Source: Lentibacter sp. XHP0401
GTDB taxonomy: Bacteria; Pseudomonadota; Alphaproteobacteria; Rhodobacterales; Rhodobacteraceae
NCBI RefSeq assembly: GCF_025751535.1
Contig: NZ_JAOWLC010000018.1
Span: forward strand, 1-35,670
Length of the DNA: 35,670 nucleotides
Direction: 5' to 3'
The notes under the pieces were generated by a model. The model searched no databases. It was not told where the DNA came from and saw nothing but the letters and a program-made list of their open reading frames with translations. Of this stretch, positions 6,021 to 31,537 are shown piece by piece. A program made the translations under genes and the position numbers. Position 1 is the first letter of the stretch. Each line of letters opens with the position of its first letter.

Positions 6021-6024
6021 GCTT

Positions 6025-6119
6025 CGGATTTGGCTTTGCCAAATCCGACCAGTTGAGGGGGACGCCGTCCCCCTCAAACTCCCCCTAACTCCCCCTGAGG
6101 TATTTTTGAACAGAAGAAG
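6025..6119 (+). repeat. Tandem hairpins and intergenic repeat, copy 3
   Basis: Two perfect stems stand side by side after the ureohydrolase stop. The first is CGGATTTGGC/GCCAAATCCG (6025-6034 with 6038-6047). The second is TTGAGGGGGAC/GTCCCCCTCAA (6053-6063 with 6067-6077). Then come two CCCCCT runs, GAGGTATTTTTG (6097-6108) and CAGAAGAAG. The order of modules parallels copies 1 and 2. It sits between convergent genes and probably terminates the plus-strand operon. Confidence 0.65.
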
Positions 6120-11310: not shown

Positions 11311-12036
11311 TCAATTCCCCTCCAGCTTGTTTTCAAAGAGTGTCGAGCGCCGCCCGCGCAGGACGATATCAAAGCGATAGGCGATGGTATCAAGCGGGAT
11401 TGTTGCGTTCATGTCGAGCTTGGCGGTGAGCTGGTCTATGGCCGCAGGATCGGGGATTGTTTGCACAATCGGGCAGCGGGCGATGAGCGGGTCGCCTTCA
11501 AAGTAAAGCTGGGTGATGAGGCGTTGAGCAAAGCCCGTGCCGAAAACTGAAAAGTGGACATGTGCGGGGCGCCAATCGTTAATACCGTTGCGCCACGGGT
11601 AGGCGCCGGGCTTGACGGTGCGGAAGTAATAGTAGCCTTCTGCATCGGTCATGGTGCGGCCGCAGCCTCCGAAATTGGGATCAATCGGGGCGAGGTAGGT
11701 ATCTTTTTTGTGTCGGTAGCGTCCGCCGGCGTTTGCCTGCCAGATCTCGACCAGAGTGTTTGGCACTGGGCGGGCGTTTTCATCGAGCACGCGGCCATGG
11801 ATGATGATACGCTCGCCTATGGGGCTTTCGCCTGCTTTGGCGTAATTATTCAAGAGGTCGTTGTCGAGCGGGTCGATATCATTGTGGCCAAAACGCGGGC
11901 CGCTGATCTCGCTTGGAGTGTTCTCAAGCGAGATCAGCGAATAGCGCGGCGAGCGGGCGACAGATGTTTTGTAAGCTGGCGTGAGGGCCGGCGCGTGCCA
12001 GTTGCGATCACGTTGGTAGAACTCGGCTGGTTTCAT
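11311..12036 (-). CDS. pcaH: Protocatechuate 3,4-dioxygenase beta subunit
   Basis: The 241-aa catalytic chain of protocatechuate 3,4-dioxygenase. The four ferric-iron ligands can be read: Tyr107 in GGRYRH, Tyr146 in GAYPW, and His159 and His161 in RPAHVHFS. The N-terminal domain, the DPLDNDLLN segment and the WQANAGGRY motif fit the family, and the length is normal. Its start overlaps the pcaC stop by 4 nt and its stop is 2 nt before pcaG, so all three are translated as a unit. Confidence 0.96.
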
Positions 12037-27595: not shown

Positions 27596-28303
27596 CTAGC
27601 GCTTTGGCAGTTCGGCCAGAACGGCGCGGGCGGCGGCGGCGGGGTCTTTCGCTTGCCAGACCGGGCGGCCCACGACGATGTGGTCGGCTCCGTCAGTGAT
27701 TGCCTTGGCAGGGGTTGCGACGCGCTTTTGATCGCCCAAGGCGGAACCTGCGGGGCGCACACCGGGGGTGACGATGAGCTTGCCCTCGGAATCAGGCAGA
27801 TCGCGGATGAGCGCGGCTTCTTGAGGGGAAGCGATAACACCATCGGCTCCGGCCTCAAAGGCGCGGCCCGCGCGCTCCAGCACCAGCGCTTGCAGATTGC
27901 CTTCCTTGATGAGCGAGGCGTCAAGATCTTCGCGGTCAAGGGATGTGAGGATCGTGACGGCGAGGATCTTCATATCGGAATTTGCCGCGCCTTCCTTGGC
28001 GGCGCGCACGACATGCGGGTCACCGTGGACTGTGAGGAAATCGAGATCAAACTGCGCGAGGCCACGCACGGCGGCCTCGACAGTTGCGCCGATATCAAAG
28101 AGCTTCATATCAAGAAAAATGCGCTTGCCGTGCTCGTCCTTCAGCTCTTGCGCCAGCGCAAGGCCGCCGCCTGTGAGCATACCGAGGCCAATTTTGTAGA
28201 AATTGACGGCATCGCCGAGTTTGGCGGCGAGCTCCATGCCTGCGATGGCATTGGGGACATCGAGGGCAACAATCAGGCGGTCGTCAGTTACGAGATCGGA
28301 CAT
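27596..28303 (-). CDS. pyrF: Orotidine 5'-phosphate decarboxylase
   Basis: A 235-aa cytoplasmic enzyme for the last step of UMP synthesis. The catalytic D-x-K-x-x-D motif reads FLDMKLFDIG (Asp65, Lys67, Asp70), and VTPGVRPAG and VVGRPVWQA are the phosphate-binding segments. The start MSDLVTDDRLIVALDVPNA at 28303 has AAGGAG upstream. That ribosome-binding sequence lies inside one arm of a 14-bp perfect inverted repeat, so initiation may depend on RNA structure. It is downstream of the small 90-aa gene on the same strand. Confidence 0.96.
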   Translation of the reverse strand: MSDLVTDDRLIVALDVPNAIAGMELAAKLGDAVNFYKIGLGMLTGGGLALAQELKDEHGKRIFLDMKLFDIGATVEAAVRGLAQFDLDFLTVHGDPHVVRAAKEGAANSDMKILAVTILTSLDREDLDASLIKEGNLQALVLERAGRAFEAGADGVIASPQEAALIRDLPDSEGKLIVTPGVRPAGSALGDQKRVATPAKAITDGADHIVVGRPVWQAKDPAAAARAVLAELPKR

Positions 28304-28308
28304 AGGGC

Positions 28309-28383
28309 GGCTCCTTCACAGCGGGTTTGCGCCTTGTTGCGGGGTTTGGGAACCGCGTCAAGGGCGCGTGCTGTGAAGGAGCC
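28309..28383 (-). promoter_or_regulatory. Long hairpin that sequesters the pyrF ribosome-binding site
   Basis: Arms 28383-28370 (GGCTCCTTCACAGC on the minus strand) and 28322-28309 (GCTGTGAAGGAGCC) pair perfectly over 14 bp. Inside, GCGCC-C-TTG (28367-28359) pairs with CAAGGCGC (28336-28329) with one bulged C, and GCGG can pair with CCGC at the tip. The 3' arm contains AAGGAG, the pyrF Shine-Dalgarno sequence, 8 nt before the ATG; the 5' arm is its anti-Shine-Dalgarno. No U-run follows, so it is not an intrinsic terminator. It fills most of the 87-nt gap between the 90-aa gene and pyrF. Confidence 0.75.
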
Positions 28384-28390
28384 TGATGCC

Positions 28391-28663
28391 TCAAGCAGCG
28401 AGCGGGGGGTGCTCAGGGGCCTGAGGGATGGATGTGAGGCGGCGCAACTGCGAGCGCAGACCCGGATTTTTGGAGCGGTGTTTGCGCAGCGCTTTGTCTG
28501 AAATCTGTTTCATCACCAGAGCGTATTCCGCATCAAGCGGGGCAGCGACAAAGCTGGGATAACTGAAGGTGTCTCCTGCATCCTGGATAAAGACAATCGC
28601 TTCATAGCCCGAAAACTCGAGGTTGTAGCGGATGCGTGCAATGCGCGTTTTACCGTAAGACAT
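28391..28663 (-). CDS. Small protein of unknown function (90 aa)
   Basis: A 90-aa soluble protein that I do not recognise. It begins SYGKTRIARIRYNLEFSGY, with EAIVFIQDAGDTFSYPSFV following, then a helix rich in Lys/Arg (ISDKALRKHRSKNPGLRSQLRR). The ATG at 28663 has an exceptionally strong AAGGAGG upstream, which supports it as a real gene; the longer frame to 29119 shadows clpB. It lies upstream of pyrF and divergent from clpB. The basic tail could bind nucleic acid, but this is only a compositional remark. Confidence 0.75.
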   Translation of the reverse strand: MSYGKTRIARIRYNLEFSGYEAIVFIQDAGDTFSYPSFVAAPLDAEYALVMKQISDKALRKHRSKNPGLRSQLRRLTSIPQAPEHPPLAA

Positions 28664-28815
28664 GATCGTCCTCCTTATTAACCGGGCGTTCAGCCCTGAT
28701 CGTAAAACGTGAGATGGGGGGTTTCCGTTCCATAAAAAGAGGGTGTTCACGCAAAGGTGAGTCAAGTTGTAAGCATTTGCGAAATTCCGCCGATGTGCTT
28801 TTTGTAGGGAGAGCT

Positions 28816-28844
28816 CTTGAAGAGGTGGCAGGAACGCCCCATTT
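28816..28844 (+). promoter_or_regulatory. RpoH (sigma-32) promoter of clpB
   Basis: CTTGAA (28816-28821), a 15-nt spacer and CCCCATTT (28837-28844) match the heat-shock consensus CTTGAA...CCCCAT-T almost perfectly. Transcription should start near 28850, giving a leader of about 70 nt before clpB. This also shows that the upstream in-frame TTG at 28817 is not a start. Confidence 0.88.
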
Positions 28845-28921
28845 TTATTCCAAGGTTCCCGACGCGACGTATGCCTCTTTTGGGTGCGCCAGCAGGGAAG
28901 GCTTATAAAAGGAGAAAGACC

Positions 28922-31537
28922 ATGAACATTGAAAAGTTCACGGAGCGTTCGCGCGGGTTTTTGCAGGCTGCGCAGACAATCGCTATGCGGGAAGATCACC
29001 AGAGGGTGATGCCCGAACACCTGCTGAAAGCAATTATGGACGACAGTGAGGGGCTTGCGAGCAACCTCATAACCAAATCGGGTGGCGCGCCTGCCCGCGT
29101 GAAAGACGCCGTGGACCAAGCTGTTGGCAAAATTGCCAAGGTGAGCGGTGACACGGGCCAGCCTTATCTTGATAAATCAATGGCCAAAGTGCTGGGCGAG
29201 GCCGAGAGCCTTGCGCAGAAAGCGGGCGACAGTTTTGTCCCTGTGGAGCGCATTTTGATGGCGCTGGCGATGGTGAAATCGGCGGCGAAAGACGCGATGG
29301 ACGCAGGCGCTGTGAATGCGCAGGCCCTGAACACGGCAATCAACGATATTCGCAAGGGTCGCACGGCAGACAGCGCCAGTGCGGAAGACAGCTACGAGGC
29401 GTTGAGCAAATACTCGACAGACCTGACCGAGCGTGCGCGCCTTGGCAAGATTGACCCGATTATTGGCCGCGACGATGAAATCCGCCGCACTATGCAGGTT
29501 CTGTCTCGCCGCACGAAGAACAACCCTGTTCTGATCGGGGAGCCGGGCGTGGGTAAAACCGCGATTGCCGAGGGGCTTGCCTTGCGCATTGTGAACGGCG
29601 ATGTGCCTGAATCTTTGCGCAACAAGAAGCTTATGTCGCTTGATATGGGCGCTTTGATTGCGGGTGCGAAGTATCGCGGCGAGTTTGAGGAGCGGCTGAA
29701 ATCGGTTCTCAACGAAGTGACGGACGCGGCCGGCGAGATCATCCTGTTTATTGACGAGATGCACACGCTTGTGGGTGCGGGCAAGGGCGATGGCGCGATG
29801 GATGCCGCGAACCTTATCAAGCCTGCCTTGGCACGCGGTGAGTTGCACTGTGTTGGCGCGACAACGCTCGACGAATACCGCAAGCATGTTGAGAAAGACG
29901 CGGCCCTCGCGCGGCGCTTCCAGCCAGTGTTTACCGAAGAACCGACTGTGGAAGACACGATCTCGATCTTGCGGGGTATCAAGGAGAAATACGAGTTGCA
30001 CCATGGTGTGCGGATTTCTGACTCTGCCTTGGTGGCCGCGGCGACACTTTCAAACCGCTATATCACCGACCGTTTTCTGCCGGACAAAGCCATTGACCTT
30101 ATGGACGAGGCGGCGAGCCGTTTGCGTATGGAAGTGGATAGCAAGCCAGAGGAGCTTGATGCGCTGGACCGCCAGATTTTGCAAATGCAGATCGAAGTGG
30201 AAGCCCTGCGCGCTGAAGATGACGAGGCTTCAAAAGACCGTCTGGAGCGGCTTGAGAAAGATCTGAGTAACCTTCAGGAAAAGTCCGACGAGATGACCGC
30301 CAACTGGCAAGCCGCACGCGACAAGCTTGAAGGCGCGCGCGAGCTTAAGGAACAGCTTGACCGCGCACGTGCCGATGGCGAGATTGCGACCCGTGAAGGC
30401 AACCTTGCGCGCGCAGGTGAGATCAGGTTCGGGATTATTCCCGACCTTGAGAAAAAGCTCGCCGCCGCCGAGGCCAGCGAAGGCGATATGACCGTGGAAG
30501 AAGCGGTGCGCCCGGAGCATGTGGCGCAGGTTATCGAGCGTTGGACAGGTATTCCGGCCGGTAAAATGCTGGAAGGTGACCGCGACAAGCTGCTTCGGAT
30601 GGAAGATGGTTTGCACAAGCGGGTGATCGGACAGAACGCGGCTGTGACGGCTGTTGCCAATGCGGTGCGCCGTGCGCGTGCCGGCTTGAACGATGAGGGG
30701 CGGCCACTTGGCAGCTTCCTGTTCCTCGGGCCGACAGGTGTGGGTAAAACCGAGCTGACAAAGGCTGTGGCCGAGTTTCTGTTTGATGACGAGCACGCGA
30801 TGACGCGGGTCGACATGAGTGAATTCATGGAGAAACACGCCGTTAGCCGCCTGATTGGTGCGCCTCCCGGTTATGTCGGCTACGAAGAAGGCGGTGTGCT
30901 GACGGAAGCTGTGCGGCGCAGGCCATATCAGGTGATCCTGTTTGACGAGGTTGAAAAGGCGCATCCCGATGTCTTTAACGTGCTGTTGCAGGTTCTGGAC
31001 GATGGTGTGCTGACCGACGGGCAGGGGCGCCATGTGTCCTTCAAGCAAACGCTGATTGTCCTTACGTCAAACCTCGGGGCGCAAGCTTTGAGCCAGTTGC
31101 CTGACGGGGCCGACGCCGGTGACGCCAAGCGTGATGTGATGGACGCGGTGCGGGCGCACTTCCGCCCCGAGTTCCTCAATCGTCTGGACGAAACGATCAT
31201 CTTTGACCGTCTGGGCCGTGAGGATATGGGCGGGATCGTCGAAATCCAGCTTGGGCTGCTCAAAAAGCGGCTTCTGGCGCGCAAGATCGAGCTTGACCTT
31301 GATGACGGCGCGATGAAGTGGCTTGCGGATGAGGGCTATGACCCTGTGTTTGGCGCACGGCCTCTGAAACGGGTGATCCAGCGCGCCTTGCAAAACCCGC
31401 TCGCGGAAGCACTGCTTGCGGGCGATATCAGGGACGGCGACACAGTGGCCGTGCGCGCGGGGGCTGATGGCCTGATCATCGGTGACCGCGTGGGGGCGAC
31501 CAACCGTGACAAGCCCGACGACGCTGTGGTGCATTAA
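28922..31537 (+). CDS. clpB: ATP-dependent disaggregase ClpB
   Basis: An 871-aa cytoplasmic AAA+ chaperone that threads aggregated proteins with DnaK/DnaJ. The order is N-domain (1-145), first nucleotide-binding domain with [10 protein letters not shown] (about 206), the coiled-coil M-domain (about 400-530, rich in Glu/Leu/Arg heptads), and the second domain with [10 protein letters not shown] (about 603). The [18 protein letters not shown] start at 28922 has AAAAGGAGAAAG upstream. The pore motif [11 protein letters not shown] and Walker B FIDEMHTL are intact. A sigma-32 promoter lies upstream and a strong terminator downstream, so it is a single heat-shock unit. Confidence 0.98.

What the first reader, a model, noticed from the sequence alone, without database searches (positions are those of the whole stretch)
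28304..28390. pyrF leader RNA hairpin with perfect anti-Shine-Dalgarno arm
Seen: a 14-bp perfect inverted repeat whose 3' arm holds the pyrF AAGGAG and whose 5' arm begins 7 nt after the stop of the 90-aa gene, with an inner 8-bp helix (one bulge) and a 4-bp tip. Nearly the whole gap folds into one extended hairpin, and no terminator U-run is present. Inference: pyrF translation is off unless the hairpin is opened, for example by ribosomes finishing the upstream gene, by a ligand, by a protein or by temperature. I do not recall a described pyrF riboswitch of this form in Alphaproteobacteria.
Basis: partly seen in the sequence, partly recalled or inferred. Interest (0 to 1): 0.7.

Follow-up and report, generated by a model that had tools for sequence, protein, structure and literature searches.

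The report
pyrF promoter inside read-through-blocking RNA hairpin
Between a small unnamed gene and the pyrimidine gene pyrF of a Rhodobacteraceae-type bacterium lies a hairpin that can hide the pyrF ribosome site, but the likely pyrF promoter sits inside its loop, so it should silence only messages running in from the upstream gene, an arrangement known from phage T4.

Summary
The hairpin is real: minus strand 28383-28370 pairs perfectly over 14 bp with 28322-28309, which holds the pyrF AAGGAG. It is more than chance: of 402 gene starts in an own-genome sample only pyrF has an SD-covering stem of 10 or more Watson-Crick pairs, and the hairpin recurs in 4 of 7 genus genomes. The main reading does not hold. 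Aligning family pyrF leaders only on TTGAC shows a sigma70-type promoter (17-nt spacer, A at -11 in 35 of 37, no T at -7). In the window it lies BETWEEN the arms (-35 28361-28356, -10 28338-28333, predicted start near 28326). Only RNA entering from the upstream 90-aa gene can fold the hairpin (SD opening cost 13.7-17.3 against 2.1-3.3 kcal/mol). In four species the 3' arm, -35 and -10 are the most conserved parts; four of six 5'-arm changes keep sense-strand G-U pairs; no two-sided compensation. Best reading: a read-through insulator that works like phage T4 gene e, perhaps derived from the upstream gene's 3'-end hairpin. No evidence for a riboswitch.

The parts
28391..28663 (-). upstream 90-aa ORF, SD AAGGAGG; no Pfam or NCBIfam match
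   Evidence: matches in 34 of 394 family genomes, own included
28370..28383 (-). 5' arm (anti-SD) GGCTCCTTCACAGC, 7 nt after the stop of the 90-aa ORF
   Evidence: 9 of 14 columns invariant in four genomes
28356..28361 (-). -35 element TTGACG of the predicted pyrF promoter, between the arms
   Evidence: family-wide motif; 6 of 6 columns invariant in four genomes
28333..28338 (-). -10 element AACAAG (17-nt spacer, A at -11, no T at -7)
   Evidence: 5 of 6 columns invariant in four genomes; PMC8407463 (abstract and passages)
28326..28326 (-). predicted transcription start (give or take a few nt), 23-nt 5' UTR
   Evidence: column +35 after TTGAC is A in 62% and G in 24% of 37 loci; not mapped by experiment
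28309..28322 (-). 3' arm GCTGTGAAGGAGCC holding the pyrF Shine-Dalgarno AAGGAG
   Evidence: 14 of 14 columns invariant in four genomes
27596..28303 (-). pyrF, orotidine-5'-phosphate decarboxylase

Best explanation
pyrF is transcribed from its own sigma70-type promoter, which lies in the loop between the two hairpin arms. RNA from this promoter carries only the 3' arm, so its Shine-Dalgarno is largely free and it is translated normally. RNA that runs in from the upstream 90-aa gene contains both arms, folds the 14-bp stem and hides the pyrF Shine-Dalgarno. The hairpin is thus a read-through insulator that ties pyrF translation to its own promoter. It works like the phage T4 gene e leader, and it may have arisen from a 3'-end hairpin of the 90-aa gene. 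Shown by computation: the stem, the promoter motif and its place, the predicted difference in SD opening cost, and conservation in four species. Inferred: that this promoter is used, that read-through RNA exists and is poorly translated, and that selection acts for this purpose.
For: Promoter: in 94 dereplicated pyrF upstream regions, TTGAC followed by 19 nt and A, starting at -75..-40, occurs in 35, against a shuffle mean of 0.8 and maximum of 4 in 200 rounds. Aligned only on TTGAC, 35 of 37 have A at +24 and 0 of 37 T at +28, as described for Alphaproteobacteria (PMC8407463, abstract and passages). In 4 of 4 hairpin genomes this promoter lies between the arms. SD opening cost is 13.7-17.3 kcal/mol in read-through RNA and 2.1-3.3 in promoter RNA. 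The outer helix is paired in 98.2% of cells while the inner and tip helices fall to 75.0% and 68.8%. Mean pairwise identity: 3' arm 1.00, -35 1.00, -10 0.92, 5' arm 0.80, other segments 0.48-0.69; the four G-U changes keep pairing only on the sense strand. One site per genome in 4 of 7 genus genomes.
Against: No transcript data: neither the start site nor read-through has been seen. 57 of 94 family loci lack an exact TTGAC in the expected place. Only four genomes have the hairpin; no two-sided compensatory change; the shuffle control does not favour the structure (335 of 500 shuffles at least as paired). Two of six 5'-arm changes break pairs, both at helix ends; the chance of 4 or more of 6 being kept is 0.01-0.16 depending on the transition bias assumed. 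Three of 7 congeners and the other family loci examined lack it, so pyrF does without it elsewhere. A pyrF protein tree does not group the four. The SD is only about half unpaired even in promoter RNA (0.44-0.61).
Confidence: 0.52

Rival explanations
1. The hairpin is mainly the 3' end of the 90-aa mRNA (an RNase barrier or U-less terminator-like stem, as between puf genes), and its overlap with the pyrF SD is a by-product of the compact gap.
For: Five near homologues of the 90-aa gene without this hairpin (G002, G005, G006, Lentibacter, Marimonas) have another hairpin beginning 5-14 nt after the stop; four have no U-run after it, Lentibacter has one. The two longest post-stop stems (14 bp) among 399 sample genes are this one and a U-less one between an M20 peptidase and an arginase-family gene.
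Against: For G005 and G006 the fold is not far below composition shuffles (z -1.4 and -1.3), and a further homologue, G015 (L127), has no strong stem right after the stop. A 47-nt loop holding a promoter is unusual for a 3'-end stem (recalled). The 3' arm is invariant over all 14 nt in four species, more than AAGGAG alone needs. Post-stop stems of 10 or more WC pairs are not rare: 25 of 399 sample genes.
Confidence: 0.25
2. Translational coupling: in read-through RNA a ribosome ending the 90-aa gene opens the stem, so pyrF is translated from that RNA only when the upstream gene is.
For: The arm begins 7 nt after the stop; if the stopped ribosome covers 12-15 nt beyond it, the SD opening cost falls to 1.4-6.8 kcal/mol.
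Against: If it covers 9 nt the cost stays at 9.6-12.8 kcal/mol; the true reach at a stop is about that (recalled). pyrF has a predicted promoter of its own, so coupling is not needed for expression.
Confidence: 0.11
3. One reading: the hairpin is a switch (ligand, protein or temperature) that controls the main pyrF message.
For: The SD is deeply buried in the full-length leader.
Against: Promoter motif between the arms; inner helices poorly conserved; no Rfam match; the stem is very stable for a thermometer (inference).
Confidence: 0.03
4. DNA-level element: the inverted repeat is a pair of protein sites flanking the promoter.
For: Arms flank the -35 and -10.
Against: Each arm is not itself a palindrome; four 5'-arm changes break DNA symmetry but keep sense-strand G-U pairs.
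Confidence: 0.05
5. Chance complementarity without function.
For: Rare in the family: 1 of 394 genomes with the pattern, the window's own; no two-sided compensation.
Against: Stem of 13-15 WC+GU pairs in four genomes, the three others being 75-84% identical to the window over the matched DNA; 1 of 402 gene starts in the sample has such an SD stem, pyrF itself.
Confidence: 0.04

Closest known systems
Phage T4 gene e (lysozyme) leader; also soc, 49, I-TevI (PMC3014915, passages of section 29 seen)
   Same: Long upstream-initiated RNA forms a helix that hides the SD; promoters just upstream of the ribosome site yield RNA without the 5' strand of the helix.
   Different: Chromosomal housekeeping gene, sigma70-type promoter without -7T, 14-bp stem directly after another gene's stop; no expression data.
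puf operon intercistronic hairpin of Rhodobacter (passages and a reference title seen in PMC6238624; details recalled)
   Same: U-less hairpin between two co-directional genes in the same bacterial family.
   Different: The puf hairpin protects upstream mRNA (recalled); here the 3' arm is the next gene's SD and the loop holds its promoter.
IS10-type fold-back protection of transposase from outside transcripts (recalled; not in the passages of PMC8450116 that I saw)
   Same: Transcripts entering from outside fold over the start site; own-promoter transcripts do not.
   Different: Mobile element, not a chromosomal biosynthesis gene.
Alphaproteobacterial sigma70 promoters lacking -7T (PMC8407463, abstract and passages)
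   Same: TTG in the -35, no T at -7, core-metabolism gene.
   Different: pyrF is not named in the main text of that paper.

Membership tests
T4 gene e-type read-through SD occlusion | helix in the long RNA sequesters the SD | tested here: met
   by prediction: opening cost 13.7-17.3 kcal/mol in 4 of 4 hairpin genomes
T4 gene e-type read-through SD occlusion | promoter between the arms, so short RNA lacks the 5' arm | tested here: met
   by sequence and family-wide motif only, in 4 of 4 hairpin genomes; no mapped 5' ends
T4 gene e-type read-through SD occlusion | long transcripts exist and are poorly translated | not testable with these tools
   no RNA or protein data
cis-regulatory RNA of a known family | match to a curated covariance model | tested here: not met
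   0 Rfam matches at gathering score in the window
structured leader under covariation | two-sided compensatory changes | tested here: not met
   0 of 26 pairs on four sequences
intrinsic terminator | GC stem followed by a U-run | tested here: not met
   no terminator-like site in the gap; the sequence after the arm is GCCCTATG
puf-type intercistronic stabilising hairpin | protects the upstream mRNA from decay | not testable with these tools
   only the position after the stop fits
dispersed repeat (REP-like) | many copies in the genome | tested here: not met
   one full-length match, other matches 35 nt or shorter; one site per hairpin genome

The most novel reading that the evidence does not exclude
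A bacterial counterpart of the eukaryotic long undecoded transcript: when the upstream gene (divergent from clpB) is switched on, transcription runs across and disturbs the pyrF promoter while yielding pyrF RNA that cannot be translated, so turning the upstream gene on turns UMP synthesis down.
Probability: 0.08. Interest if true: 0.75.

Novelty: new variant of a known kind. Interest (0 to 1): 0.38.

Why it matters
If right, it shows that a device known from phage T4, where the promoter is placed inside an SD-hiding hairpin so that only its own transcripts are translated, also serves a housekeeping gene on a bacterial chromosome. It gives a simple sequence signature (anti-SD arm, promoter, SD arm) that can be sought in other genomes. 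It also warns that an SD-hiding leader must be checked for an internal promoter before it is called a riboswitch.

Tried and rejected
Rfam search of the window: nothing at gathering score. Generic promoter scan: 0 hits at 28200-28950; its rule asks for a T at the end of the -10, which this promoter lacks. Repeat-element idea: single copy. Hairpin elsewhere in the family: WC stems of 11 or more near the pyrF start in 2 of 108 loci, WC+GU stems of 13 or more in 4 of 108, these four being the hairpin genomes; pattern in 1 of 394 family genomes, the window's own. Four Litoreibacter loci (L077, L109, L113, L116) have an unrelated 9-10 bp WC stem upstream of the SD. In G002 the hairpin after the 90-aa gene holds AGGAG, but the next gene (phd-like by its look, not searched) seems to start some 70 nt on, so that lead was dropped. 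Tree of 12 pyrF proteins: the four hairpin genomes are not one clade (3 changes; starred branches force 2; 1 of 9 inner branches starred), so one gain with losses, regain or transfer stay open. Paper searches for read-through SD occlusion, a pyrF start site in Rhodobacter, a pyrF leader in Alphaproteobacteria and undecoded isoforms in bacteria listed no paper on such a case by title and abstract start; only open-access PMC papers were searched.

Choices and drops: 118 loci were at hand and pyrF was found in 111. L009, L040 and L041 were left out as duplicates (108 left), and 14 more for 80% or higher identity over the last 60 nt (94 left). The loci are those of the window's family by kinship or named records, most of them titled as Rhodobacteraceae genera, a few only as Alphaproteobacteria. 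Start codons were set by a rule; L012 was first set at a GTG downstream of the likely ATG and put right. The own-genome sample is 20 stretches of 20 kb plus the window, about 12% of the genome. The first gene set was picked by length and probably held false antisense ORFs, and one search did not list the hairpins after the 90-aa ORF and the M20 peptidase; a codon-usage set of 403 genes, looked at in the window and L156, replaced it and gave the same two 14-bp starts. The first alignment (A1) cut off two 3' arms and was replaced by A2.

Full report
Observation. The 87-nt gap between the 90-aa ORF and pyrF, both on the minus strand, folds as described: a perfect 14-bp stem (28309-28322 with 28370-28383), inner 8-bp helix with one bulge and a 4-bp tip, the 3' arm holding AAGGAG, the 5' arm 7 nt after the stop, and no U-run. 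MFE of the minus strand is -50 kcal/mol, z -5.07, 0 of 200 shuffles as low. In a sample of 435,670 nt of the same genome, 402 gene starts (codon-usage gene set, pyrF included) hold two perfect stems of 10 or more WC pairs ending 5-22 nt before the start, both of 14 bp; the other 400 reach at most 9, and of the two only pyrF has it on the SD. A cruder ORF set gave the same two of 436. In 108 family pyrF loci the four longest WC+GU stems (13-15 bp) belong to the four genomes with this hairpin; the other 104 reach at most 11. So it is real and more than chance.

Promoter between the arms. pyrF upstream regions from 108 loci of the family were reduced to 94. TTGAC starts at -75..-40 from the start codon in 37 of 94 (shuffle mean 3.4, maximum 9 in 200 rounds), and TTGAC plus 19 nt plus A in 35 of 94 (mean 0.8, maximum 4). 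When the 37 are aligned on TTGAC alone, position +24 is A in 35 of 37, +27 is A in 62%, +28 is never T, and +35 is A or G in 86%. This is a -35, a 17-nt spacer, a -10 with A at -11 and without T at -7, and a purine start. Myers et al. 2021 (PMC8407463; abstract and passages seen) report that most of the alphaproteobacterial sigma70 promoters they analysed lack the -7T and that essential and core genes are over-represented at such promoters. The other 57 of 94 loci have no exact TTGAC there; allowing TGGAC raises the two-box count to 51 of 94 (shuffle mean 1.4, maximum 6). In the window the promoter is TTGACG 28361-28356 and AACAAG 28338-28333, with a predicted start near 28326, 4 nt before the 3' arm. 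In the three other hairpin genomes it also lies between the arms, with the predicted start 1-4 nt before the 3' arm.

Consequence. RNA from this promoter cannot form the stem. Predicted cost of opening the SD is 2.1-3.3 kcal/mol in promoter RNA and 13.7-17.3 in RNA entering from upstream; mean unpaired probability of the SD is 0.44-0.61 against 0.001 or less. All this is prediction: no start site or transcript has been mapped here.

Evolution. The hairpin is in 4 of 7 genus genomes (G000, G001, G003, G004) and in 1 of 394 genomes drawn across the family, the window's own. In the four, mean pairwise identity by segment is 3' arm 1.00, -35 1.00, -10 0.92, 5' arm 0.80, the rest 0.48-0.69. The outer helix keeps 54 of 55 cells paired, one more cell being a gap, both at helix ends; the inner and tip helices keep 75.0% and 68.8% and are made largely of -35, -10 and spacer letters. 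Of six 5'-arm changes four keep pairing as G-U on the sense strand, where the antisense strand would mismatch, and two break end pairs. There is no two-sided compensatory change, and the shuffle control gives no support, so the covariation evidence is weak. A tree of 12 pyrF proteins does not group the four: one gain with losses, regain or transfer remain open.

Possible origin. Five near homologues of the 90-aa gene without this hairpin carry other hairpins beginning 5-14 nt after the stop: without a U-run in G002, G005, G006 and Marimonas, with one in Lentibacter. Against composition shuffles these are strong in G002 (z -5.9) and Lentibacter (-3.7), fair in Marimonas (-2.6) and weak in G005 (-1.4) and G006 (-1.3); more distant homologues are mixed, and G015 has no strong stem right after the stop. 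In the four compact genomes a 3'-end hairpin and the pyrF ribosome site may have merged. Post-stop stems of 10 or more WC pairs occur in 25 of 399 sample genes, and the two longest (14 bp, both U-less) are this one and one between an M20 peptidase and an arginase-family gene.

Mechanism and rivals. The best reading is a read-through insulator as in phage T4 gene e, where long early RNA hides the ribosome site and late promoters just upstream give RNA without the 5' strand (PMC3014915, passages of section 29). Translational coupling is not excluded: if a ribosome at the stop covers 12-15 nt beyond it the SD cost falls to 1.4-6.8 kcal/mol, but at 9 nt it stays at 9.6-12.8. A pure 3'-end role for the upstream gene is the strongest rival. 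A ligand switch, a thermometer, a DNA operator and chance are unlikely for the reasons in the Rival explanations section.

Setting. The 90-aa ORF has no Pfam or NCBIfam match; 34 of 394 family genomes, own included, have a match at E 0.001 or better, many of them weak. It stands head to head with clpB (NCBIfam TIGR03346), which has a sigma32-like promoter (CTTGAA, 15 nt, CCCCATTT in the window; consensus recalled) found by the same loose pattern in 8 of 9 compared loci. Whether upstream transcription changes on heat shock is unknown; if it does, the insulator would keep pyrF out of that response, and the bold reading (interference plus untranslatable RNA) could be tested.

The gene-start and post-stop controls were redone with a better gene set, clpB was confirmed, and the weak z-scores of G005 and G006 were added.

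Noticed in passing
L156:10864-10919 (G000:C11:230864-230919): A second U-less 14-bp perfect hairpin in the same genome, starting right after the stop of an M20 peptidase gene and ending just before the ribosome site of an arginase-family gene.
   Followed up: partly
L077, L109, L113, L116 (Litoreibacter pyrF leaders): A 9-10 bp WC stem (GCAGCTAGGG/CCCTAGCTGC type) lies over the -10 region and just upstream of the pyrF SD.
   Followed up: no
window 28816-28844: Sigma32-like promoter of clpB (CTTGAA ... CCCCATTT), matched by a loose pattern in 8 of 9 related loci.
   Followed up: partly
window 28711-28722: A CCCCAT-type block upstream of the 90-aa ORF is partly kept in relatives and may be part of its promoter.
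   Followed up: no
window 28391-28663: 90-aa protein without Pfam or NCBIfam match, divergent from clpB here; matches in 34 of 394 family genomes, own included.
   Followed up: partly
window 11901-11939 and 6024-6077: Other perfect inverted repeats of 15 bp, and of 11 bp (two close together).
   Followed up: no
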